A stretch of 64,000 nucleotides of DNA from Heliocybe sulcata (Eukaryota > Basidiomycota > Agaricomycetes > Gloeophyllales > Gloeophyllaceae): positions 162,150 to 226,149 of the forward strand of contig ML213519.1 in NCBI GenBank assembly GCA_004369045.1, in the 5' to 3' direction. The notes under the pieces were generated by a model that saw only the letters and a list, made by a program, of their open reading frames with translations, ran no database searches and was not told where the DNA came from. How positions within the stretch are numbered: position 1 is the stretch's first letter; each line of letters starts with the position of its first letter. The translations under genes were made by a program, and so were the position numbers. Of this stretch, positions 10,023-60,200 are shown in pieces.

Positions 10023-10422
10023 NNNNNNNNNNNNNNNNNNNNNNNNNNNNNNNNNNNNNNNNNNNNNNNNNNNNNNNNNNNNNNNNNNNNNNNNNNNNNN
10101 NNNNNNNNNNNNNNNNNNNNNNNNNNNNNNNNNNNNNNNNNNNNNNNNNNNNNNNNNNNNNNNNNNNNNNNNNNNNNNNNNNNNNNNNNNNNNNNNNNNN
10201 NNNNNNNNNNNNNNNNNNNNNNNNNNNNNNNNNNNNNNNNNNNNNNNNNNNNNNNNNNNNNNNNNNNNNNNNNNNNNNNNNNNNNNNNNNNNNNNNNNNN
10301 NNNNNNNNNNNNNNNNNNNNNNNNNNNNNNNNNNNNNNNNNNNNNNNNNNNNNNNNNNNNNNNNNNNNNNNNNNNNNNNNNNNNNNNNNNNNNNNNNNNN
10401 NNNNNNNNNNNNNNNNNNNNNN
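10023..10422. other. Assembly gap (400 N)
   Basis: Exactly 400 consecutive N mark a scaffold gap of arbitrary or estimated size. The next gene's 3' end begins only 39 bases to the right, so the gap does not interrupt that gene, whose stop codon lies at 10462-10464. Confidence 0.99.
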
Positions 10423-24875: not shown

Positions 24876-27800
24876 ATGCTCTTTAGTGGTGGATCCATCG
24901 CTGGCACATCCTTCTCCTCGAAGAAGTGGGGAGGCGACGGCGAGCTCGTCCCCATGCCCGACCTGAACTCGCCTGCGGCGCTCGACCTGGCCGAGCAGCG
25001 GGAGAAGAGGACGTCAACGCTGCAATCAACAACGGCTCCGGTCTCCCCCGCCATCTTGGATGCCCTATTACCCCAACCGGCTGTCTCTACGTCTCCGAAT
25101 CGGAAGCAGCGGAAGCGTGCCAGAGTGCACAACAACTTCAGTCTGCAATGGAGCATGCTTAAGAAACGGGTGATGAATGCGTCTGCGCCGTCGACATCGT
25201 CGCTTGTGATGAAATCGACTGAGGAGGAGAGCGAGCATCGGCCGTGGGCGGCGAAGATGGATTCGCTGGATGAGGATGGGGTTGTGGACGAGGTGGTGGT
25301 GGATCGGATGTGGTCGGAGGATATGAAGAGCTCGGTCTCGCCGTCGGATTTTGAGGGGACGCCCGAGAAGAGCACCACTCATCAGCCCGGGACTACCACC
25401 GATCACGAGAGCTTCACGCAGATCGAGGGATTCTGGGCATCTTCAACACCGCTCCTCTTCTTGCGAGGGATGATATGGCCACCCATCGATAGGTTCTTTC
25501 ATCTACGGTTTGATGATGCTCCTATCGAGGAACATTACACGAAGGAGAACTGGTTCGTCAAAAAGGTGAGCTTCCCGGTCCTTGTCGTGTGGCCTCTTAC
25601 ACGTGTCGCTATAGCCGCTTGCGATATGGGCATCTCTGTTCTACGTTCTCAACTGGGTTCTAGCCTGCGGCTTCATTCCTAAACCACTGGTCCTCTCGGA
25701 CAACATCTATTACTTCGGGGTAAGCACACATCACCTTCGCTCAATATCATCGAATAACCATCAGGGTCTATAGATTGCTACTGCCGTCACAATACCGCTC
25801 CCTCCCATGGTCATCTTCGACTGGCCTCGCGACCATAACGTCTTCTACCAGTTATTTCTCTGCTTCTCGACATGGTCATGGTCATGCTATCAGCTGGTTC
25901 AGATGTAGGGCGCAGCGCATTCCTTTGATCTTCACGACGTTGATTTGTCCACAGGTACTGCTGCGGCTTCTACACCAATGGAGAGTCGCACACGTTCTTT
26001 TCTTGTGGGAACAAGGACTTTCTTGCCACATTTTAGTGAGTCCTGCATACCTTGCGCGGGAGTATAGTGTTCATACCAAATACCTTTCTCAAGCTGGTCA
26101 GCTGGGCTGAGTACCATCTCGTTGTTTGGGTTGAAGCAGCATCGGCTGCCACACATGATCGGAGCTATCTGTTGGCTTGTCCTGTGAGTGTTCTCTCCCT
26201 AGTATTTACATGCGCAGCGTTGACTAGATTGAAGTGCTTGCGTACTCATTATCCCTGACCGGCATACATGGACGCGGAGTAAGTGCGATATCTGACTTAT
26301 GGTAGCGTATCTCCTGATCGTTTATACAGATGTCCTCAACCATGTCGTGTACCAGTCTTTCCTGCTCTACGTGCATTATACGCGAGAAAACGTGAGTATC
26401 CCCGACTCTGCGCGTCGTAACCCTTCCCCATTTGTTATGCATTCGCCGCTGTAACACCCTTCACTTTTAACTTTCCTTCTATCTCTGATGACGTCGTTCC
26501 TGCGTTTCTCCGACATTCATTCCGTTATCTGACATCTGACTGAATTGGATATGGAATTTGTTATTGTAGGGCGAGCGGAGGCTGTACATGTTGCGCGACC
26601 AAGTGAAGAAAGCGTGGCGGACGACGCAGAAGGCGCGGATCAATGAGGGGAAGGCGGCCGATTCGAAGCGGCGGTTGACTTCGTGAGTCGCTCCTACGTA
26701 TCGGTATCCAGATACATTGAGATTGACGGCAGTCCTGTGGTGGTATAGATATGTGTTCCATGATACGTATTTTCTACGAAGTTTGCGGCGGGTGGTAGGC
26801 TAATTTGGGATTTGGCGGGTGTACAGGTGCGAGTGCCGCTAAATACGGCTCTGCTCGCGGTCCAGAATATGGAAGCTGCTGGGACGGTACCGAAGAATCA
26901 GCAGATTGAGTTCAAGGCGCTGGAGGGCAGTCTAAGTATGATGTCTAAAGGTGCGTCGTCTATAGACATGTGACAAACTGTGTCCTGACGTCCTATCATC
27001 TTTTAGTGCTCAATGATGTTCTTGACTTGTACGTTCATGCCTTTCGATCATTACAGATTTGATGCAAACGTGGTCGTATCTCCAGCGACCGTATGGACAG
27101 TGGACGGTTTGAATCGGTTTCGAAGCCCTACTCTTTCCATCATGTTATGCGGTCTCTGCTTGTGCCCCTACAACTTGCGACAAACGCACGAAATCTGGAA
27201 TTGGTCACTGAGTTTGATGAGAATATCGATTTAGTACGTGACTATGTACCATGCTGTGTCTGACCTTTCTCACGATAACCACAGGTGTCCCGAAGAGCTG
27301 CGTACCTGGCAATGGGCCACCAGCCAGACGTAGTCGAGAAGCTCGTACAAGAGCATCCTGACGAGGACGGCATCGTGTGCGGCGACGAGACCCGGTTCCG
27401 GCAGATCATCACCAACCTCGCGAGCAACGCTTGCAAGTTCACGCAGTCTGGTGGGAAGCTCAGTGTCAGGACCCAGCTTGTTATGCCCAGCGTCGCGCCT
27501 CCTGCGCATTCGAGCTGCGAGCCACCATGTTCGGAGACGGACTTTACGGATCATACTGATGGGTCGAAGGTCCCGGATTCGGCGGTGTTGGATGTGGAGG
27601 AGGGGTTCGGCGATAAGGTCCTGGGGCACCATGTTCTTTCGGCGACGCATCTGAGCCAGCATAATCTGCACCATGCGCAAGGGAACCCTTTGGAGTGGAT
27701 CGTGGTGCGCATTGAGGTTACGGATACGGGGTGTGGGATCAAGCCGAAGGATATGGCGCATAGCAAGTTGTTCTCGGCGTTTAATCAGACTGAGCAGGGT

Positions 27801-29143
27801 AGGCAGCAAGGTATGTGGTGAGCTAGGAGGAACAGGAGGTGCTGTGACTGATTTGGGCGTTGGTAGGTGGGAAAGGCACTGGTTTGGGCCTTGCGCTCGT
27901 ACGGCAGATTGTGATGCTGAGTCGAGGAAGACTTGGTGTCCGGTCGAAGGTCGGTGAGGGATCTACTTTCTGGGTGGAATTGCGTAAGTCGATCATGGTC
28001 GAGTGGAGAGATGCATGAAGCTCAACTACGTTTGCGTAGCGCTGGGAGTAGGCACGAAGGCGATACAGGGCGCGACTCCCCGGCCGAATTTGGTTGAACG
28101 CTCGGACGAACTGGGTATTCCCTCATTGCTCTCGGATGGTCAACACACATCGGACAAGCCAGAGAAGATTGCGCGGGACAAGCGAACGTCCTCTGCCTTC
28201 ACTACGATCATGGAACAAGGTTCGTTTCCTTCTTTTTGCGAAGTTGTTTATGGTGCCGACATGCCATCGTGTAGGCGGTTTGGTGGAGTTGATCCCCAGC
28301 AAGCCGGGAGAGGCGCCTGTGCTCACTCGGACGATTGGCGACCCGAATACTGGTACAGGGCCTGATAAAGCAACGCCTCGAGAAATGTGGCAACCTCCAC
28401 CTCCTGAGCCTTCGTCTCCTACGGATGCTCCGCGCACGACTGCCCGTCCGTCGCATGTGGACTTGCCCAAACCTCGGCAGTTCACGGCGTACGACTTTGT
28501 CGATCCGGCCGTCTCTTCGTCCTCGACTCTGGCTCCGGGTCAGACGCCTCCATCTGCGAGAACTGATCCATCCACGCCGCCTGAGTTCGAGAGCGGGATA
28601 CCTGTCTTTCGTGGACGACGACCCGTTGACTCGGATGCTTATGAAGCGGCTGCTGACGAGAGTGGGCTGTCGCGTGTCTACGGCCGAGAACGGGGAGGTT
28701 GCGCTGGAAATGATCTTGAACGGTACACGTCCCTCTGCGGAGACGCCTGGCAGTCAGGGATCAGAGCCTGCTGAGAGTTCGGCATCGGGTACTGGGCCAC
28801 AAATAGCCGAGGAGAGTCGGTTCGCAGCCGTGTTCTTGGACAACCAGATGCCTGTGTTGTCTGGTCTTGACACGGTGGCGAAACTACGCGAGGCGGGCAG
28901 ACGTGACTTCGTGGTCGGCGTTACAGGCAATGCGCTTTTGCAGGACCAAGAGGATTATCTGCAGGCTGGCGTGGATTAGTGAGTTGCTGCGATCTTGTGA
29001 TGTGCTCCGGCCACTGACGTTAGTCTAGCGTCTTGACTAAACCTGTTCTTGAGAAGAGCTTACGAAGTATGCTGGCCTTGGCCGACGAACGACGTAAACG
29101 GGCACAACTAGAACATCAGTCCCCGCCACAACCATCCTCTTGA
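24876..29143 (+). CDS. Membrane-bound hybrid histidine kinase (HK + receiver)
   Basis: The gene starts at Met 24876 and ends with TGA 29141-29143. A 220-residue cytosolic N-terminus precedes about six hydrophobic segments (for example LAIWASLFYVLNWVLACGFI, VFYQLFLCFSTWSWSCYQLV, MIGAICWLVLACVLII). A coiled linker leads to the H-box FHEVRVPLNTALLAVQN (phospho-acceptor His near 26760), the N-box NLASNACKFTQSGG, the G1 box VTDTGCGI, the F-box SAFNQTEQ and the G2 box GKGTGLGLALVRQIV. After a Pro/Ser-rich linker a receiver follows with the acidic pocket FVDDDPLTRMLMKRLL, phospho-acceptor Asp in FLDNQMPVLSGLD, and the conserved Lys in LTKPV. Fungal hybrid kinases signal through Ypd1 to Ssk1/Skn7 in stress responses. 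Two oddities: the H-box needs an AT-AC intron (26763-26824), and the receiver lies in a different frame from the linker (near 28600). Confidence 0.85.
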
Positions 29144-30061: not shown

Positions 30062-31090
30062 ATGACATCAAAGAAAACGTCCGACTGGCGGCCAACCGGT
30101 ACGTGCTCAATCTGAAAGCTCAGACTCCGCTAGTAGTGTGGCCGAAAATTGTTACTAACCGCGTCCTCAGAGTCGCTGTTCCAAGAAGATCCCACTGCCG
30201 ACGTGGTCCTCCGCTCTAGGGATGGAGTAGACTTCCGCGCGCACATGCATATCCTATCCATTGCCTCCCACTTATTCCGCGACATGTTCAGTCTGGGCAA
30301 AGCCAGCGATCCAGCGCCCGAAAGGAAGGACGTGCTATCGCTCGAGGATCGCGTAGTCCCTATGACTGAGGAGACGGCCGAGGTCGTCGAGAAGCTCTTG
30401 CAGCTTTGTTATCCAGTAGATCAGCCGACATGGGACAATGCAGGGCAGATACACCCCGTCCTCGCCGCCGCCAAGAAGTACCAGATGGAGACAATCGTGA
30501 GGAGGCTCATGAAAGAGCTGATGACGCCGAGGTTTCTCGAGAAGGAGTCGTTGCGAATCTTCGCAATCGCTTGCCATCTGAAGTTGAATGACTCTGCACA
30601 GGTAGCAGCGAGGCATACTCTGTCTCACCCTATACAGATGAAGCACGCCAGGAAGGAGTTGCAATTTATTTCTGGCCTCTCTGTGCTTGGGCTCTTCGAG
30701 TTCCGACAGGAGTGCAGCAAGGCCGCTGCTACGTTGGCCACCGACCCTGGATGCATAGACGTCGTCAGAGGTGAGGGCAACTGGGCCTTGTTCAAATGCT
30801 CGGATACCACATGCCATCCCGTATACCGGTCCCAGGCCTATTCAAGAGAGTGTCCTCAATGGTGGTACACCTACCTGTCCAGCGCCCACGCTGCTCTGAC
30901 AGAGAAACCTTCGGGTACTTCTGCAATGACTGACGAAACACTGAAACCAGCGCTGGAGGAAGCAAGTAGGTGCAACAGGTGCTGTTCGAGCGCGTACTTG
31001 GACTTGGCACGGTTCGGTAGACTACTCGGGGTTATCGTGGAGAGAACAGTCGAAAAGGCGAGTGCAGAGCTTAGCAGTCCGTCCGCCTGA
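30062..31090 (+). CDS. BTB/POZ domain protein, paralogue 1
   Basis: Two exons (30062-30098 and 30171-31090) give 318 aa. The start Met was chosen because MTSKKTSDWRPT plus a phase-1 GTACGT donor joins cleanly to ESLFQEDPTADVVLRSRDGV, the intron having a CTAAC branch site. Residues 15-110 form a BTB fold: DPTADVVLRS, DFRAHMHILSIASHLFRDMF, VPMTEETAEVVEKLLQLCYP. The rest (IHPVLAAAKKYQMETIVRRL, FLEKESLRIFAIACHL) is the alpha-helical extension usual in basidiomycete BTB proteins, ending in a Cys-containing region (CNRCCSSAYLDLARFGRLL). BTB proteins often dimerise and may recruit Cullin-3, but no substrate-binding domain is present. It is a paralogue of the genes at 33562-34644 and 35682-36713 and lies in the opposite orientation. 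Confidence 0.8.
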
Positions 31091-33561: not shown

Positions 33562-34644
33562 TCAATTACTGCAGAAGTCGTAAGTCTCGGCGATCTGGGG
33601 CGTCAGCAAGCTGATCGTTAGTTTCGTCACGGCCTCCTTGCTCTTCAGGCTCACCTCCTTGTTTTCTTTATCAACTGCTGCTGCCAGGAGGCCGCTGAAC
33701 CGTGCCAGGTCCCAGTACCCTCGTGCAGCGCAAGTGCTGCACGAGGATGCCGCGGCTAGAGCAGGTTTCAGTACAGATTCTGAGGTCGCCGACACACCGC
33801 AAGGTTTCTTTGTCAGGGCATTGCGAGCATCTTTCAACCACGTGTGTAGCCAGACCGATACGTTGCCATGGTAAGAGGAGTTTGTCCGAGGACAATTCTT
33901 GTTTTCGCATTTAGTCCATACCCAATCTTCGCTGGAGGCGCCCCAGCCTGATGTCTTAGTCGTTTGGACAGCAGCAGCGCTGCAATCTGAGCGATACTCG
34001 AAGAGTTTGTGCAAGGTATACGCGGAGATGACCTGTAACTCTTGTACTGTTGGTTTATTGATCATGGGCTTTCGCAGTGTCCATTCTGCCGCTATCCGTG
34101 CCTCTTCGCCGAGTTTCAGTCGACTTGCGATAACGAATATGCGCAGTGGCTCGTTCTCCAGGAACTTGGCTGTTACCAACTCTTTCCTCAGCAATCTTGT
34201 CGCGGCTTCAACTTGGTATTTGATAGCTGCTGCCAGGACGGGATGGATCTCTGCGGCGTCCCTCCATGACGGCGGGTCGACGGGATAGCAGAGCTGTAAC
34301 AGCTTCTCCACGACCTTGCCATTCTCCTCCGTCATAGGTACAGTGTCGCTGTTGCCAGTGGCCTGCCCCTCTGACTTGCTTGCCGCACCGCCTACTTTGA
34401 AATGCATGTCACGGAATAGTTCGGATGCAAGCGACAGGATGATTTTGTGGGCGCGGAAGTCGAACCCGTCTGTGGAGCGCAGGATAACATCGGCTGTCTC
34501 ATCTTCCTGGAAGAGTCGCTCTGATAGACGATCAATGAAGTCAACGATGATTGGGCTTTGTTTGTGGTACGTACGAGTCAGCTGCCATTGGGGAGCGTCA
34601 TCGACTAGTGGTTCAGGTGAAGCTACTTCGGACGATGCGTCCAT
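33562..34644 (-). CDS. BTB/POZ domain protein, paralogue 2
   Basis: The start is Met 34644 and the stop is at 33562-33564. The frame is open throughout (360 codons), but the two paralogues have an intron exactly after the W-Q/R-x-T motif. Here the same place has a perfect GTACGT...CTATCAG intron (34521-34574, 54 nt, no stop). Splicing gives 342 aa with QLTQRLFQEDETADVILRST matching the paralogues. BTB motifs: DFRAHKIILSLASELFRDMH and VPMTEENGKVVEKLLQLCYP, then IHPVLAAAIKYQVEAATRLL and FLENEPLRIFVIASRLKLGE. The C-terminus ends with a Cys cluster (CSTCAARGYWDLARFSGLLA) and a basic tail. Function is unknown beyond the BTB fold; a possible Cullin-3 adaptor role is inference only. Confidence 0.8.
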   Translation of the reverse strand: MDASSEVASPEPLVDDAPQWQLTRTYHKQSPIIVDFIDRLSERLFQEDETADVILRSTDGFDFRAHKIILSLASELFRDMHFKVGGAASKSEGQATGNSDTVPMTEENGKVVEKLLQLCYPVDPPSWRDAAEIHPVLAAAIKYQVEAATRLLRKELVTAKFLENEPLRIFVIASRLKLGEEARIAAEWTLRKPMINKPTVQELQVISAYTLHKLFEYRSDCSAAAVQTTKTSGWGASSEDWVWTKCENKNCPRTNSSYHGNVSVWLHTWLKDARNALTKKPCGVSATSESVLKPALAAASSCSTCAARGYWDLARFSGLLAAAVDKENKEVSLKSKEAVTKLTISLLTPQIAETYDFCSN

Positions 34645-34979
34645 TCTCGACTACCTGTGTGGAATGAGAGTGAAGCTGGTGGTGTGGTGTCAAGCAAGGA
34701 GAGCGTCTATTGTCCATGGGAGCGTTTTGTGCAAGTATGGTGATTATTTTCACTCTGGGCAATACAGACTGTTCATATTATCAGGACCGGATCTTCATGC
34801 GGTATGCAGTTAGCGTTGTTTGCAACAGAGGATCCCTGGACATTGAGAAGGTATTCTTAGATTCGTTGGATCGTTAGTATATCAAGACTAATACAAATTT
34901 CGTTTATGAGATTGAAGGTCTATTTCCACAGATATTGTTCGGCGAACGCAAAACAAGATTCATGCCAGGAGAGTGTACC
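34645..34979. other. Short intergenic stretch
   Basis: Likely promoter and 5' UTR of the second BTB gene. Nothing else is visible. Confidence 0.4.
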
Positions 34980-35681: not shown

Positions 35682-36713
35682 TCATACATGTTGGACATGA
35701 ACACGGTATCCTGAACGCACCTCGTTAACTTTCCTATCCACAGCATCAGCAAGTCGTCTGCTGAAGCGAGTCAAGTCCATGTACGCCTTCGAGCTGCAGT
35801 TGCTGCAGGTACTTGCTTCCTCCAACGCCGCTTTAAGTGTTTCTTCTCTCGTTGCAGAGCTCCCGGAAGGGTTCTGTGTCAGAGCAGCGCGGGCGCTTGA
35901 CAGATAGGTACGCCACCACTTGACTACGTACTCGTCGAAGCGAACTGATCTGGGTCGCCAGGAATGCTTCTGACATTTGAACCATACCCAGTCGCAGTCG
36001 CAATCGGGGACCCATCCCATACACGAAGAGTCCGAAGAGTCCGTAGTCAGCTCCGCAGCTGCCTTGCTGCACTTGTCTCGAAACTGGAGGAAGCGATATA
36101 GGGAAAAGGCAGTGATAGACGACAGTTCTGTTGGAGCTTCCTCTAGGAGTATAGGGTGAGACAGCGCGTGCCTCGCAGCTACTCGCGCATCGTTGGTGAA
36201 CTTCGCATGGCAGGCGATGGCGAAGACTCGCAACGGCTCGCTCTCTAGAAATCTGGGCGCGACCAGCTCCCTCCTCAAAGTCTCCACGACCCCCTCCAAC
36301 TGGTATTTGATAGCGGCCATCAGAACGGGATGCAGCTCCGCGGCGTTCTCCCACCTCGGACCTTTGACTGGGTAGCAAAGTCGCAACAGCTTTTCGACGA
36401 CTTCGGCTCTCTCCTCGGTCATAGGCACAACACGATCATCTGGCGGTTGCATATCGTGCCTGGCAGGCATGGAATTACTGGCTCCGCCGACGCTGAACAT
36501 ATCCCGGAACAACGGGGAGGCAATGGATAGCATGAGTTTGTGCGCGCGGAAGTCTGCTCCATCCGTAGAGCGGAGAATCACATCGGCAGTAGGGTCTTCT
36601 TGGAACAACGGCTCTAAGCTCGCGATTAGCTGTCGTCTTATTCTACCGCCAGCTCTCTGCTAGTCTGGGTACGTACCGGTGGGTTGCCACCCGGATTTCC
36701 TGCTGGATTCCAT
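35682..36713 (-). CDS. BTB/POZ domain protein, paralogue 3
   Basis: Two exons (36713-36677 and 36613-35682, minus) give 322 aa. Exon 1 encodes MESSRKSGWQPT and ends in phase 1 at a GTACGT donor. The 63-nt intron joins to EPLFQEDPTADVILRSTDGA, the same site and phase as in the other two copies. BTB motifs: DFRAHKLMLSIASPLFRDMF and VPMTEERAEVVEKLLRLCYP; helical extension: LHPVLMAAIKYQLEGVVETL and FLESEPLRVFAIACHAKF. A Cys/Trp-rich part (SSCMGWVPDCDCDWVWFKC) and CSNCSSKAYMDLTRFSRRLA close the protein. It is the closest of the three to paralogue 1 in its LFQEDPTADV core. Partner proteins are unknown. Confidence 0.8.
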
Positions 36714-44714: not shown

Positions 44715-46806
44715 ATGGGGAATAAGAAAGGACAACAACAGAAGAGGAAGCAGCAGGCTCAGGCCCGGAAAGCTGCTGCACAGTATGTCGCTCTAACACA
44801 TAGTCCTGGCAGAGGACTTACCCTGTATCAGAAAGCAGGATGAAGTCGAGCAGTCCGCGGTCGAAGTCGAGGTCGACGGAGAGACCAGTGGCAGCTCAGA
44901 AGAGTCCTCGCCCCCGCCGCCGTACGCTGAGGAGCCACCAGTACCCGTAGATGCCGCAGCAGAGGCGGAGAAGACGAAGGAGCAAGGAAATGTTGCCTTC
45001 AAAGCAAAGCGGTGGACAGAGGCAGTCGAACTGTACACTGAGGCTATTGGTACGGTTCTCAATACTTCTATTTACTACTTACTTATTATATGCCAGATTT
45101 AATGCCGACCGAGCCTGCGTACCTTACCAACCGCGCCGCTGCCTATATGGCGCTGAAGCGGTTCCGACCTGCACTGGCAGACTGTCAACAAGCTGCCACT
45201 CTTCAGTCCGCGTCCCCGTCCGCAAAGACACTCGTTCGCCTTGCACGATGCCAGCTTGCGATTGGGTCACCTACACCAGCCCTCTCGACTCTCCGCTCCG
45301 CCTTGGAAGCCGAGCCGGGAAATGCGGCTGCTTTACAGCTCCAGGAGAAAGTGTTGGAGCTAGAGGCACATGTGCGGAACTTCGACGGCGCTAGAGCACG
45401 GAAGGACTGGGGTATGGCGCGGTTGGCGCTGGATAAGTGCTTTCAGGGTATAGAAGGAGAGGGAGGGGACACGCCTACCGAGTGGAGGCTCTGGAGAGTC
45501 GAGCTAGAACTGGCTCGTAGTAACTGGGATGCTGCCAACACCGCTGCAAAGTGAGTGCGGCAGGCTGTTGCTGTGAGGTTGTGGACTGACGCGAACCTCA
45601 TAGTGATGCTTTACGTCTCAACCCCAACTCTCCTGACGTCCTTACTCTGCGTGGCTTGATTCTGTTCCTATCCGCGAAGCTGGCGCAGGCATTACAGCAC
45701 GTATCTAGCGCCCTGCGGCTGGACCCGGGCCACGAGCCCGCCATGAAGCTACGTAGACGTGTCAAAGACGTTGAGCGGCTGAAAGAGGAAGGTAACCAGG
45801 CCTTCAAGTCAGGACAGCTTCAGAATGCAGTCGATAAGTATGGGGAAGCGCTGGAGGTCAGTACCAACCGGTTTTTCGTCCATAGTATGAGGGTACTTAT
45901 GATTGTGCCAGCGAGTGGGGGACAAGGAGGAGGAAGGGAAGGGCGGGCAGATGCGGGCAACACTGCTATCGAATCGAGCTACGACACTGGTTAAGGTGTG
46001 TCTTGCCCCAGTTGCCAGAATCTGATCTCGCTTAGATCTCAATGATGGACAGATGAACCGATACGAAGAAGCTCTCGCTGACACCGACGTATCGCTTTCC
46101 CTGAGTCCCACGTCCTTTAAGGCCCTCCGAACGCGCGCTCGTATACACCTCCATATGGAGAAATACGACGAGGCCGTGTCGGACTTCAAAGCGTCCATGG
46201 AACAAGCCGGTGTCGAAGGCAGCGACGCTGACGTGCGTGCTTTGAAGGACGAGTTGAAGAAGGCGGAGGCTGCCCTAAAGAGGAGCAAAACAAAGGATTA
46301 CTACAAAATTTTGGGTAATGCATGCTCTATCGCTCTTCCGCTTGCACGACCTGATGACTTGTGTTATAGGTGTCTCGAGGGAGGCGTCCGAGATCGAGAT
46401 AAAGAAGGCATACCGCAGGGAAAGTCTCATCCACCATCCAGACAAGGCCAGACTCTCTTCCCTTTTCTCTTGAGGCTCATAATCATATCTCATCCGTTTA
46501 TAGGGCGGCGACGAAGAGAAGTTCAAACTGGTCGTCGAAGCTCACGGAGTCCTCTCAGATCCTCGACGGCGTGAACGCTACGACCTGGGCGAGGACGAGG
46601 ACGGGCAGACGGATTCGTCAGGCATGGGTGGCATGGGCGGCATGGACTTCTCCGACTTCTTCTTCCACAGTGGTGGACACCCTGGGTTTGGCGGACACAG
46701 TAGTGGCGGATTTGGCGGTGGTGGGTTTGGCGGCGCAGGTGGGTTTGGAGGTGGAGGTGGAGGGACGTACTACCGGTCATCGAGAGGGTTTGGGGGAGGC
46801 TTCTAA
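44715..46806 (+). CDS. TPR and J-domain co-chaperone (DNAJC7/Tpr2-like)
   Basis: The start is Met 44715 ([17 protein letters not shown]), with a basic head and then an acidic linker. TPR repeats follow: [120 protein letters not shown]. The C-terminal J domain starts [20 protein letters not shown] and has the essential HPD in [11 protein letters not shown], ending [13 protein letters not shown]. The tail is very Gly/Phe-rich ([18 protein letters not shown]). This layout is DNAJC7/Tpr2, which shuttles clients between Hsp70 and Hsp90. The final exon at 46504-46806 ends with TAA. All intron joins I checked keep frame. Confidence 0.87.
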
Positions 46807-51955: not shown

Positions 51956-54900
51956 ATGCCAGCGCTTTCAGGGAGTCATGCCTTGAAAAGCGGAGAAAGG
52001 ACTGTTGCTCAAAGCAGAGCGAGCTCCCTCGGAGGCAAGGTACCGGTCCGCGAATATGAACAGTTGAAAGAAAAACATGTAGGTGTCATCGTAATGTCCT
52101 GCTTTCGTGCCCAACGACTCACGGATGATGTTGCTTCTTCTAGAATCTCTGCGTGACAGAGGAAATGCAATCGGCTTATGACGGGTGCAAGGCGGAGGTC
52201 GACCGAATCATTGAACACTGCAGGTAGGTGGCCTGGCGTATCGGTAGAATCGATGGACAGCGACTGAATATTTCCCTCTCATGACGCTTCTATTATTCCT
52301 GACCAGAAATGGGAACAGACGTTTCCGGTAACATTCGCTGTAGCCCTTACAAGGAGAATATATGGACTCACGTTGTAATACCTCTAGTGACCTCGAATTC
52401 GACCTCGAAGAAGATCGGGATGATTGCCTGTACGGGCTTGAAAGGGACGAGTCTTGTCAGCCGCCTGATATTCTCCGTGTGACGGATATATTCCGCGACC
52501 CCGAGCCGGTGTTATTCAAGGAAGGTGCAACTGCAGATGACCTCGTTCAGGGTCAGCTGCAAGACTGTTGGTTTCTGGCTGCGTTAGCCACAGTATGCAC
52601 CGCGAGCAAGGACTCTAACTGGATCGAAAGGAAGATATGCGTGAAGGTATTTGTTCCGCCTTCTCGGAAACTGCACGCTCACATTCTTCCCTCAAGCACG
52701 ACGTGCAAGTGGGAGTCTATGGCTTCATTTTCTACCGCGACCGCGGATGGGTCCACGTCGTAGTTGATGAGTACGGCACGCTTCTATGGTGTTGAGACCG
52801 ATGTGAATTCTGTTTGCGTTGGTAGCCTATTGTTTGTCCATGCCCCGAAATACGAGAACGTACAGGAGGAGGCAAGTACACTGTATGCTTTATATTGCAC
52901 CACCAGCGGTTCTGATTCTGACCTAGGAACAAATTCGGTTTCGAAGGGATAAGGATCAATATAATAAAGTGGCCAGGAGCGGATCGAAGTCTCTCTACTT
53001 CGCTTCCTCCGGAACTGAAGGAGAGACATGGGTGTAAGTCTATGTCTCGTTGCTGCTGACACGGGACTGACCACCTTTCTAGGCCACTCATTGAGAAAGC
53101 CTTTGCTAAGCTCCACGGCGACTATGCGGCATTAAACTATGGGTTTACCTGTGACGCAGTAGAGAGTCTGACGGGGTAAGATCAAATCCAACTCGACTGA
53201 AGGTCGTTACGCACATCACATGTTTAGCGGTGTCTACAACTGTTTCCATCTGCACGACATTCTCGACAGCGACAAGTTCTGGAGAGAAGAATTGATGAAA
53301 CTCAGCGATAAAGTTAATGGAGATAAAGCTAGCAAAGACAGAGTCTTCAGTTGTCTGCTAGCTAATCCTTCGAACGACAGCGACACGTCGGTGTCAATTC
53401 GCGGTTTGAGGCCTGGTGCGTGAACCATTATTGACTCAAGGGCTGGGCGTCATCTGATGCTGAATGTTGTGCAGAGCACGCATATTCTATCATTGACGCT
53501 ATCGAACACCCGAAGACCGGTAAGCGTTTTGTCAAGATCCGCAACCCTTGGGGTAGAGGTGGAGAGTGGGACGGACGCTGGAGCGACGGGTCTAAGGAAT
53601 GGACGACCAAATGGGCAGTGCCTGGTACTGAAGAGCTAGTTCACATTCGTGCCGAGGATCTAGGTCACGAATTTGGAGATGACGGCCAATTCATCATGGA
53701 ATGTACGTCCCATGATTTATATCTGGCTGACCGAAGTTAACCAGTCACCAGTTGATGACTTCTTGTCGACATGGTCCTATGTAGATCGAACGAAGTTGTT
53801 CAACGACGAGTGGGCCTATAGTTGCCATTGGCTCAACGTCTCTACTCGTCCTGCGCCTTGTGGGTTCTTCCATTACCCCAGGAGATACGATCTAATAGTC
53901 TGGCAGCTGCTTGGAGTCCAGGCGACGTATCATGTGAGTTCGTATACCAGTTCATGTTACTGCTCTAATGTATAGTCTGCAGTTTCGATCACAATCGCCG
54001 AAGATACCCCGGCTGTTATCGTGCTGTCGCAGCTCGACGACCGTGCATTCCATGAATTATCAGGGTGCTACAAATGGTCTTTGGATTTTGTCATGTACAA
54101 GCAAGGCGCCGGCCAGCAAGAGATTGGCAGATCTGTACATGAAAGACTATGGCGTCGCAGTGTCAACTTAGAGTTGAGTAATCTCCAGAAGGGCACTTAC
54201 ATCGTGCACGTACGTCTTTTACGAGTGACCAACCGGCGACGATCTGACAGTGGACTAGGCCAGAGTAGATCGAAAGCATAGGCAGGAAGCGTATGTTGAC
54301 CTATATCACGAGATCAAAGCTGGTGTCCGCACCACGGTGATGCCAGGAGCGTTCCATACCGAGGCTATGAAAGGGAAGGAAGTGTCGTTGTCACGTCCCT
54401 ATATCCGAGAACTGTCTCTGCGTCGAAAGGAATGGGATGAAAGGAAGCTTGCGAAGAAGTGGGCGAAGGCGATTGCCAGTAAGAGTATAGCATCCAGTGA
54501 GTAGAGAATGATTCGCATGTGTAACTGGCAGCTGATCCCGGCATGGGCCAGACTTTGTCCCTCAGTGAGTAAGCCCGCCTCCACAACATAACACAAAAAC
54601 TGAAGCGTCCGCTATAGCCTATACGAGGAAATGATCCCGATTAGCCACGACTTCCTGGGTGGACAGGATCTAAGCGAAATACAAGCTGACGTCTTCGACG
54701 ACAGGCAAGAAACATTTGAGCCGCCCTTATCGGCCGCTTCCGACTCTACAGTTTTTCAAGAGGCTTTCAGGCAGAGCCAACAGCGGCAGATAGCGGGTAG
54801 TCCCGAGTCAGTCAGAACCCGTGTACCAGAGCGGCAACGGCAGAGTACTGCTATATTTGCTGGTTTCATATGTAGCCAGTGCGAGGTGTGTAGTGACGCC

Positions 54901-57213: not shown

Positions 57214-60200
57214 CTAAGTACTCGCACCGGTCAGCTGTTTATCCACTGGCTTGAGGTCAAAGCTTACTTCGTCTTTCAGTTTCTTAGCTTCTGTCGTGGT
57301 ATCCACTCGCAGCGTAATATGTGAGCCTCGTTGATGCCCGTGAGCAGTCATGCATTTCTTGCAGATGTCGTATTCGGCACATCTAGTGCATAAAATTTAG
57401 TCTCCATGATTCATGAACACTCGGGCAACCTACTCCATGCATCGATAGAACGTTCCCACGATTGGATATGCCTGATAGTCGAAGTGCTGTAAAATCTGAT
57501 ATTCCACTGAGAACGTCCAACTCACCCCGCAGCCGTTACATTTGAATGATTGGTGTTTGGTGGCGGCATCGCCCTGCTCCTGCTGCTCGAGGGGATGATC
57601 GTGCATGTCAGTCTTGTATTCATTGGCGAGTCCGACGACTTTAGCTGGTGCTTGCTCAAGCGTGGATCGAGTCGGGAATCCATTCAATGCCACACTTGGC
57701 GTCGGACCGATGGGACTCGAGACGAAGCTCCGTGTTCCCGATATCGACATGTTTGCAAGTTGCTGAATTACTGCGAGATTCTTTCCCTTGAAGATTGCAT
57801 CGTCCAATGGTATGGCATCTCCATAGCGCCTGAATGCTGGAGTCAGCTACACGGCAAGTTCGCAACCTGAAGGGATTCACTCAGGATTGAAATCTATCGT
57901 CGGCAGGTGCTCAGTAAGTCGCCCAAGAGAGAGCCACAGAACTCACTTCTCGCCAAGCTGCGGCTTGCATACGCACCCGCCCACTTGCGGCCCAGTTTCC
58001 GTATGTCCCAGGACGACTCCAGTTTGCGAACAACAGAAAGGGAGTGTTGACTAGCGCGAACGTGGACTCCGGGCATCATGCCCTCCTTGTCAGAGGCTCT
58101 GTCATGGTAAAGATCGGCATGCGCATTCAGCTTTTTCTTCCGGTCAACTCGCGCCTGGGTGGAGTCGGTCACGTACATCTTCGAGTCATGAAAGCAATGA
58201 ACGTACGTGTACCACGTAATTGCCGGCTTCAAGATCTATCTCTAGATTGACGCTACGTCGCCAGAGACGCTCATGTGTCGACGTTGCTACAAGTTCATCG
58301 GTACCTTCTCGGTACAGGCTGAAGTCCAGTGACCACTCGTAGCATCCTGATAGCTCGTAGAAATGACGGTCATCCAGACGTGACAACACGATGACGGCAG
58401 GGGTATCCTCATCGACGTGGATCGTATCTGATGCGAATGTCAAAATTAGCATCAACGAATCAGACCATGTCTATGAGACCCACACGACACATCGCCGTAA
58501 TTCCAAGCACCTTGTGTGGTTTCAGGGTATTGATCAAGCGAACTAGGCAGATCACATACAGGGAAGGGAACGGGCGGTCACATTGAGCCAGAGGGAACTG
58601 ACGATCCAGGAATCATCGAACAATCTTGTCCGATCCACATATGTCCATGTTGACAGAAAATCTTTGTCTACTGCCGTTCAGCCTCAACTTGCATAGGGAC
58701 AATGAAGGCACTCACATTCCATAATGAACTCCCCATCCTCGCCGAATTTATGGCCAATATCCGTAGGGTGTAGCAGGGATGTCCATTCCTTTGACCCGTC
58801 ACTCCATGGACCAGTCCATTCACCCTTACCCCATGGGTTCCTGATCTTGAGGAAGCGTTTACCTTTGTGGAGAACCGAGATGAACATCGATTATTATACG
58901 GATGAACGACTGGACGGACCTTTGTACTCTATAGCTTCCATGATCGAGTAAGCGTGGTCTTGGATGTTGTTAGTGCAATGAACGTGTCTTGAATAATGAG
59001 TGTATTACCTTCCCATAAGCCTGCGTGACGCAGCAGATTATCAGAACATCGAAAGCACCAAGGGCGTAATAGCAGACTAGCCTGAAGATGAATTCAGAAT
59101 GACGCAGCTAAATACTCTGTCCTTCTCCGCTCCTTCTTTCAGCTTCAGCAGTTCTTCGTTCCAGAATCGCTCTTTATCCAGAATATCATGCAGATAGAAG
59201 CAATTGGAGACGCCGCTGGGAATAATCAATGCCTTTGGAAATGTTATCATACCACAAGAAAAGCTCACCCTGTTAAGCTCTCGACACCTTCACATGTCCA
59301 GCCATGATTTAAGGCCTCATAATCGCCATGGAGCTTCGCAAACGCTTTCTCAATCAGCGGCCTAGGCAATAATCAGTCTCCTTTCAGGTGGATAATTCCG
59401 TTGAATGTTGCACATACACCCAAGTCTCGTTCTCCGTTCCAGACGAAGCATAGTATAGGGACTTCGTGCCTCTTCTTGCCATTTTGTCATACAAGGCTTT
59501 GTTAGAGCGGAAGTAGTGTTTCTCCTGTAAGTGGAGATAAATATGTGTTACCGCATCGGCGAAAATGCAAAATGGGTCCTGTACCTTATCCGGCAGATCT
59601 TCGTATTTTGGAGCGTATATGGGAAGCAAACTGGAAAGACAAACGTAAGTCAGCTCGCAATATTACTAGAAGGTACAGTAGTCTGACTCGTCCACGATGA
59701 CGTCGACCCATCCGCCATCTCTGTAGAATATGAAACCGTAGACGCCTACCACTGGATCGTGCTGCAAACAAATTAGGGGAGAAGGACCGGAAGATAAGGG
59801 CAGACGACTCACATCGACGCAAATCTTATTGATTAGGTCACGGATTGTGCTGACTGTGGCAAGAGCCGACAAGAACCAGCAATCCTGTAATCTGCCCTGG
59901 ACAAGGTCTTCACCGGTAGCTCCATCAATCATGAACTGCGGATTGTCGTATAGTTCTTCTATACGAAGTATGTCCATAGGCTCATTTTCCTCGTTGGCGA
60001 GCCCGCCTCCGAGTCCGTACAGGCAGCATTGTTGGTCCTCTTCGAGATCAAATTCGAGGTCGCTACATAGCTACGGTCTCCCCTATGATCTAAACCAGAT
60101 CGATTTATACCAGGGACATACCGAAACCGTCTATTGCGTTTCCTAGAAGAAGAGCATTTTCAGCCCGGGAGTCCGCGAGCGCTTAACGATGTATGACGCT

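What the first reader, a model, noticed from the sequence alone, without database searches (positions are those of the whole stretch)
26763..26824. AT-AC intron inside the H-box of a hybrid histidine kinase
The conserved phospho-acceptor motif FHEVRVPLNTALLAVQN is only produced if a 62-nt intron is removed that begins ATACGTATTTTC and ends GGGTGTAC. It splits the Glu codon right after the catalytic His (CAT G / AG GTG CGA). The 5' end looks like a normal GTACGT donor with G1 changed to A, and the 3' end is AC instead of AG: the known compensatory pair for U2-type AT-AC introns. A CTAAT branch-like site lies about 22 nt before the end. The shifted GT-AG choice (GTATTT...ACAG, 26767-26826) gives a premature stop, and a GT-AG intron 26753-26826 would delete V-F-H-E and hence the active His. 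Alternative splicing could therefore switch kinase competence.
Basis: partly seen in the sequence, partly recalled or inferred. Interest (0 to 1): 0.75.

Follow-up and report, generated by a model that had tools for sequence, protein, structure and literature searches.

The report
Damaged splice site in kinase gene
A fungal sensor-kinase gene has one intron whose start lacks the usual splice signal right beside the active-site histidine; it may be a rare AT-AC intron, but it looks somewhat more like an ordinary intron that lost two letters, so it is probably unremarkable until RNA or resequencing says otherwise.

Summary
The letters are as described. A 62-nt stretch (26763-26824, ATACGT...GTGTAC) must be removed to give the H-box SYVFHEVRVPLN of a hybrid histidine kinase (Pfam HisKA 38.6 bits); no GT-AG path within the bounds searched keeps it. 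The gene's other 15 introns join in frame as GT-AG. The "compensatory AT-AC pair" is not independent evidence. The stretch can slide: 26763-26824 (AT-AC) and 26764-26825 (TA-CA) both give His-Glu, and 26765-26826 (AC-AG) gives His-Asp. The AC precedes a strong canonical acceptor, TACAG|G (8.2; exceeded by 2 of 30 reference acceptors), and ACAG ends 8 of 38 ordinary introns here. A phase-0 GT-AG intron (GAG|GTACGT...TACAG|GTG) lacking the two border G's gives exactly this sequence. A probable, unproven second frame break lies at the receiver start of the same gene (~28605); none was seen in the parts read of five other spliced genes and three BTB frames. Best reading: a lesioned ordinary 5' splice site, by assembly error or natural allele (0.55). 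A genuine U2-type AT-AC intron remains possible (0.27). No fungal homologue, RNA or genome was available; a regulated splicing switch has no support.

The parts
24876..29143 (+). hybrid histidine kinase gene, 17 exons: about 230-residue N-terminal extension, hydrophobic region, HisKA, HATPase_c, linker, receiver
   Evidence: gene model; Pfam; hydropathy
26570..26682 (+). exon 8, ends ..SKRRLTS (TC of a split codon)
26683..26748 (+). intron 8, GTGAGT..TATAG, canonical
26749..26762 (+). exon 9 (AT-AC reading), A TAT GTG TTC CAT G: carries the phospho-acceptor His (CAT 26759-26761)
26763..26824 (+). the 62-nt stretch read as an AT-AC intron; other registers 26764-26825 (TA-CA) and 26765-26826 (AC-AG)
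26800..26804 (+). CTAAT branch-like site, A 23 nt before 26826 (position worked out from the distance and read)
26822..26827 (+). TACAG|G, strong ordinary GT-AG acceptor (8.2; exceeded by 2 of 30 reference acceptors)
26753..26826 (+). alternative in-frame GT-AG intron that would delete VFHE; weak donor GTGTTC (-0.8), sum 7.5
26767..26826 (+). alternative GT-AG intron (donor GTATTT 3.1, acceptor 8.2) that gives FHDTCECR-stop
26825..26950 (+). exon 10, (G)AG GTG CGA GTG CCG.. rest of the H-box
28595..28615 (+). probable second frame break: linker reads in one frame up to ..EFESGIPV, receiver VDDDPLTR in another

Best explanation
Intron 9 is by descent an ordinary U2-type GT-AG intron lying in phase 0 between the Glu codon and the next Val codon of the H-box (CAT GAG | GTACGT...TACAG | GTG). 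In the sequence given, its 5' border lacks two G's, through an assembly error or a natural lesion or allele. The AT-AC ends are what one reads when the frame-restoring 62-nt stretch is slid left, because the exon-final AG and the intron-final AG are the same letters. If the letters are right, the GT sites nearby would most easily give a premature stop (26767-26826) or an in-frame loss of VFHE (26753-26826). Shown: the slide equivalence, the strong canonical acceptor, and no canonical route to the H-box within the bounds searched. Inferred: the ancestral form, the lesion, and what the spliceosome would do.
For: The registers 26763-26824, 26764-26825 and 26765-26826 restore H-E, H-E and H-D, so AT-AC is not singled out by the protein. 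The acceptor TACAG|G at 26826 scores 8.2, exceeded by 2 of 30 ordinary acceptors. ACAG ends 8 of 38 frame-checked introns, exons end in AG before 10 of 38, and both hold in 2 of 38, so this context is ordinary. GAG|GTACGT would score 8.6 as a donor. The same gene has a probable second frame break at the receiver start. No frame break was seen in the joined parts of the F-box/WD40, TPR and USP genes (580, 491 and 419 positions, no internal stop), in the part of a phenol-hydroxylase-like gene joined over eight introns, in an ALG5-like gene by eye or in three uninterrupted BTB reading frames.
Against: No homologue or read shows the ancestral junction. The border that an AT-AC origin implies, ATG|GTACGT, would score even higher (9.9) than GAG|GTACGT (8.6). 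Losing a complete GG pair is not the typical homopolymer error (recalled), and the controls suggest a good local assembly. The receiver break is not proven: of 37 stop-free GT-AG pairs that could bridge it, one (28283-28358) scores 5.5, just above the weakest reference intron (5.3), and another 5.1. Two lesions in this gene and none in the controls could be chance; I ran no test of it. The kinase domains are otherwise recognisable and open, as expected of a working gene. AT-AC at 0.019% of annotated fungal introns (PMC7072748, Table 1) is not clearly rarer than a two-base loss at one exact spot.
Confidence: 0.55

Rival explanations
1. A genuine U2-type AT-AC intron, spliced CATG|ATACGT...GTGTAC|AGGTG by the major spliceosome, with A1 and C-last pairing in place of G1 and G-last. 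The kinase is functional.
For: No GT-AG path found keeps the H-box. The donor tail ACGT matches GTACGT donors of the same gene (27029, 27234), and the GT form of this border (ATG|GTACGT) would score 9.9, a little above the GAG form (8.6). The ends fit the first/last nucleotide rule discussed for U2-type AT-AC introns (PMC2831892, passages). Kinase, ATPase and receiver domains are otherwise recognisable. The annotated rate, 0.019% of fungal introns, is not clearly lower than that of a two-base loss at one exact spot.
Against: AC lies directly before a strong AG acceptor and arises by the slide alone, so it adds little. The gene has a probable second frame break. The published AT-AC rate is from annotations and may include such artefacts (inference). 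The weight matrices were trained on GT-AG introns and penalise A1 and C-last by construction (4.0 and -0.9), so those scores are not counted against it.
Confidence: 0.27
2. The real splice is the in-frame GT-AG intron 26753-26826 and the protein lacks V-F-H-E: a kinase-dead hybrid kinase, alone or as an isoform.
For: It is in the best-scoring complete GT-AG path of the enumeration and its donor-plus-acceptor sum, 7.5, lies inside the 5.3-17.8 range of 30 reference introns. It stays in frame.
Against: Donor TAT|GTGTTC scores -0.8, below all 30 leave-one-out scores (minimum -0.2), and the competing GT at 26767 scores 3.1 with the same acceptor. HisKA falls from 38.6 to 24.2 bits, below the cut-off of 26.9. 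The VFHE letters are still exactly there.
Confidence: 0.1
3. Another register is used, AC-AG at 26765-26826, giving FHDVRVPLN.
For: It uses the strong acceptor TACAG|G and keeps nearly the full HisKA score (37.5 bits; register).
Against: All combinations other than GT-AG, GC-AG and AT-AC together make 0.257% of annotated fungal introns (PMC7072748, Table 1), and it changes the Glu after the catalytic His.
Confidence: 0.05

Closest known systems
U2-type AT-AC introns (e.g. human SCN4A intron 21, PMC2831892 passage)
   Same: AT...AC ends in one register, U2-like donor tail and branch-like site
   Different: the AC abuts a canonical TACAG|G acceptor, splicing is unproven, and no orthologue was seen
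ordinary GT-AG intron with a mutated or mis-sequenced 5' splice site
   Same: acceptor, branch-like site, length (60-64 nt; 36 of 38 introns are 46-74 nt) and donor tail all ordinary
   Different: the two G's at the border are absent
AbETR2-type (group VI) hybrid histidine kinase of Agaricus bisporus (PMC9603746, passages and section 5)
   Same: hydrophobic N-terminal half, no GAF found by Pfam, HisKA-HATPase-receiver; a Cys at 303 near their Cys291

Membership tests
U2-type AT-AC intron | spliced junction at AT and AC shown by RNA | not testable with these tools
   no RNA data and no genome held
U2-type AT-AC intron | AT and AC the only register that gives the conserved protein | tested here: not met
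   TA-CA gives the same protein, AC-AG gives His-Asp; this is a test of the evidence, not a property every AT-AC intron must have
U2-type AT-AC intron | donor tail like major-class donors | tested here: met
   ACGT tail as in GTACGT donors
U2-type AT-AC intron | same ends in orthologues | not testable with these tools
   no fungal relative found
U12-type intron | ATATCCTT donor and TCCTTAAC branch (motifs recalled) | tested here: not met
   donor ATACGT, branch-like CTAAT; no convincing minor introns in Ascomycota or Basidiomycota (PMC10639083 passage), if the host is one
GT-AG U2 intron | GT at the start in a frame that keeps the H-box | tested here: not met
   enumeration within stated bounds
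GT-AG U2 intron | strong AG acceptor in the required frame | tested here: met
   TACAG|G, 8.2, phase 0 before GTG
Hybrid histidine kinase | HisKA, HATPase_c and receiver domains | tested here: met
   38.6, 85.4 and 67.1 bits in separate joined pieces
Hybrid histidine kinase | one open frame through to the receiver | tested here: inconclusive
   frame change ~28605, only marginal GT-AG introns could bridge it

The most novel reading that the evidence does not exclude
A real U2-type AT-AC intron that splits the His-Glu of a kinase active site and competes with an in-frame GT-AG choice deleting VFHE, so that splicing sets the ratio of active to kinase-dead receptor.
Probability: 0.06. Interest if true: 0.7.

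Novelty: new member of a known kind. Interest (0 to 1): 0.25.

Why it matters
If real, it would be a rare AT-AC intron in a fungus placed exactly at a catalytic motif. If not, it is a useful caution: whenever an exon ends in AG before a damaged GT, sliding the gap makes an apparent AT..NN intron, and with the common ACAG acceptor it looks like a compensatory AT-AC pair. Catalogues of non-canonical introns built from protein or gene-model evidence alone could contain such cases.

Tried and rejected
Homologues: the search for related loci in viral contigs with the HATPase exon and with a 91-residue piece found none. The same piece in genome contigs found 165 stretches that encode a relative, of which the best 80 were kept; these are bacterial by their titles and of no use for the intron. 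A search of the paper library for the strings HEVRVPLN and FHEVRVP found 0 papers. Searches for AT-AC introns in fungi, basidiomycete kinases and non-canonical introns gave base rates and background only; four papers were opened, for passages and one section.

My first suspicion that introns 5 and 6 also lacked a G (note) was wrong: with intron 5 at 26184-26234 both are canonical and in frame. Two WD40-gene introns were one base off and set right. In one search the AC-AG candidate was labelled 26766 and it was joined one base off; one search gives the right register, 26765-26826. Codon-usage windows did not locate the receiver frame switch. One search looked at a narrower set of bridging introns (16) than (37 GT-AG, 54 GC-AG, 38 AT-AC). 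The random-stretch control (best GT-AG pair at least 5.3 in 269 of 300 stretches, at least 3.0 in 292) did not require open frames, so it cannot be set beside the 37; it does show that a pair at 5.5 is no evidence of an intron.

U12-type intron: rejected (no U12 donor or branch motif, motifs recalled). Note that 38 of 38 GT-AG holds by construction, since those introns were chosen as GT-AG that join in frame. One further junction (46447-46503) has no GT and was read as GC-AG; it is outside the 38.

Full report
What is there. The window holds a plus-strand gene at 24876-29143 that I modelled with 17 exons. Pfam finds HisKA (38.6 bits), HATPase_c (85.4 bits) and Response_reg (67.1 bits) on its joined exon pieces. 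Fifteen of its 16 introns join in frame as GT-AG: introns 1-8 and 10-15 in the joined translation, the last one by eye. The remaining one, intron 9, is the one in the finding.

The observation. ATACGTATTTTC..GGGTGTAC at 26763-26824 is exact. With it removed, the reading is RRLTSYVFHEVRVPLNTALLAVQN. I enumerated one- and two-intron GT-AG paths between exon 8 and exon 10 (donors 26640-26829, acceptors 26660-26859, introns of at least 35 nt). There were 44 open ones; four kept FH but followed by DTYFLRSLRR, and none kept a normal H-box.

Why AT-AC is not established. The excised stretch can slide: 26763-26824 (AT-AC) and 26764-26825 (TA-CA) give His-Glu, and 26765-26826 (AC-AG) gives His-Asp. The letters after the AC are AG|GTG, so the AC is part of TACAG|G. 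A weight matrix from 30 frame-checked introns gives that acceptor 8.2, exceeded by 2 of the 30 leave-one-out values. ACAG ends 8 of 38 introns in six genes. An ordinary border CAT GAG|GTACGT whose two G's are missing reads CATGATACGT, exactly what is seen. The A of the AT is then the exon's A and the T is the T of GT, so AT is automatic and AC comes along in about one case in five. The pair is therefore weak evidence for a compensatory change. The same arithmetic does not refute AT-AC either: GAG|GTACGT would score 8.6 as a donor, and ATG|GTACGT, the border from which an AT-AC intron would have come by substitution, 9.9. The low scores of the AT and AC ends themselves (4.0 and -0.9) follow from training on GT-AG introns and say nothing.

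A second anomaly in the same gene. At about 28605 the Pro/Ser-rich linker (..PSTPPEFESGIPV) and the receiver (VDDDPLTRMLMKRLL..) are in different frames. The net change is two bases missing or one extra, or an intron. Of 37 stop-free GT-AG pairs that would bridge it, the best scores 5.5 (28283-28358), then 5.1 and 3.0; the 30 reference introns range from 5.3 to 17.8. So a canonical intron is possible only at the very edge of the range, and the best one would move some 250 nt of linker into an Arg/Leu-rich frame. Codon usage did not decide between the frames. I take a frame break as likely, not proven.

Controls. The joined parts of the F-box/WD40 gene (580), TPR gene with an HPD-type J region (491) and USP gene (419 positions) have no internal stop (families by Pfam, the J region and the name USP by recall). 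A minus-strand phenol-hydroxylase-like gene (Phe_hydrox_dim) joins over eight introns without a break until the next, unjoined intron. An ALG5-like gene (Glycos_transf_2; name recalled) joins by eye over two introns. Three BTB reading frames run 317, 362 and 325 residues stop to stop. Other genes of the window were not checked. So frame breaks do not seem common in this assembly, which argues against a generally poor sequence but fits a gene-specific lesion or a local fault. I did not test whether two here and none there exceeds chance.

Base rates. Fungal annotations hold 0.019% AT-AC introns (PMC7072748, Table 1, passage seen). Minor introns are not convincingly found in Ascomycota or Basidiomycota (PMC10639083, passage), so a true AT-AC intron in such a host would be U2-type. 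Such introns exist, and U2-type splicing is strict about the first and last nucleotides (PMC2831892, passages). This prior does not exclude AT-AC, and a two-base loss at one exact place is rare too. The second anomaly is what tips my judgement; the odds are a judgement, not a computation.

How it most likely works. As sequenced, the usual donor is missing. With the same strong acceptor the GT at 26767 (3.1, stop) sums to about 11.3 and the GT at 26753 (-0.8, VFHE lost) to 7.5, both inside the range of reference introns. If the letters are right and AT-AC is not used, the product is thus expected to be truncated or kinase-dead. If the letters are an assembly fault, the gene has an ordinary intron and an ordinary kinase. 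No evidence points to regulation.

What kind of kinase. The layout (about 230-residue N-terminal extension, hydrophobic stretches, no GAF found by Pfam, HisKA, HATPase, receiver) resembles AbETR2, the group VI kinase of Agaricus bisporus with ethylene-binding helices and Cys291 (PMC9603746, passages and section 5). A Cys at 303 lies nearby, but my hydropathy scan, which found four hydrophobic stretches, did not call the one that holds it. This is resemblance by layout only.

The statements on the 7.5 and 11.3 sums, the 9.9 score and the limits of the enumeration were added, and the membrane-helix and control wording was corrected.

Noticed in passing
28595-28615: Probable frame break between linker and receiver domain of the same kinase gene; only marginal GT-AG introns could bridge it.
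   Followed up: partly
46447-46503: Intron of a TPR gene between HHPDK and GGDEEKF has no GT at its start; best read as GC-AG with an unusual GCCAGA donor.
   Followed up: partly
24876-26391: N-terminal half of the kinase resembles in layout the ethylene-binding hybrid kinase AbETR2 of Agaricus bisporus.
   Followed up: partly
10023-10422: 400 N: a scaffold gap, so this is a draft assembly.
   Followed up: no
30137-31090, 33562-34650, 35682-36659: Three BTB/POZ genes close together, each one long uninterrupted reading frame.
   Followed up: no
52344-52760 (+) and 59669-60070 (-): Two reading frames with calpain-type protease (Peptidase_C2) matches.
   Followed up: no
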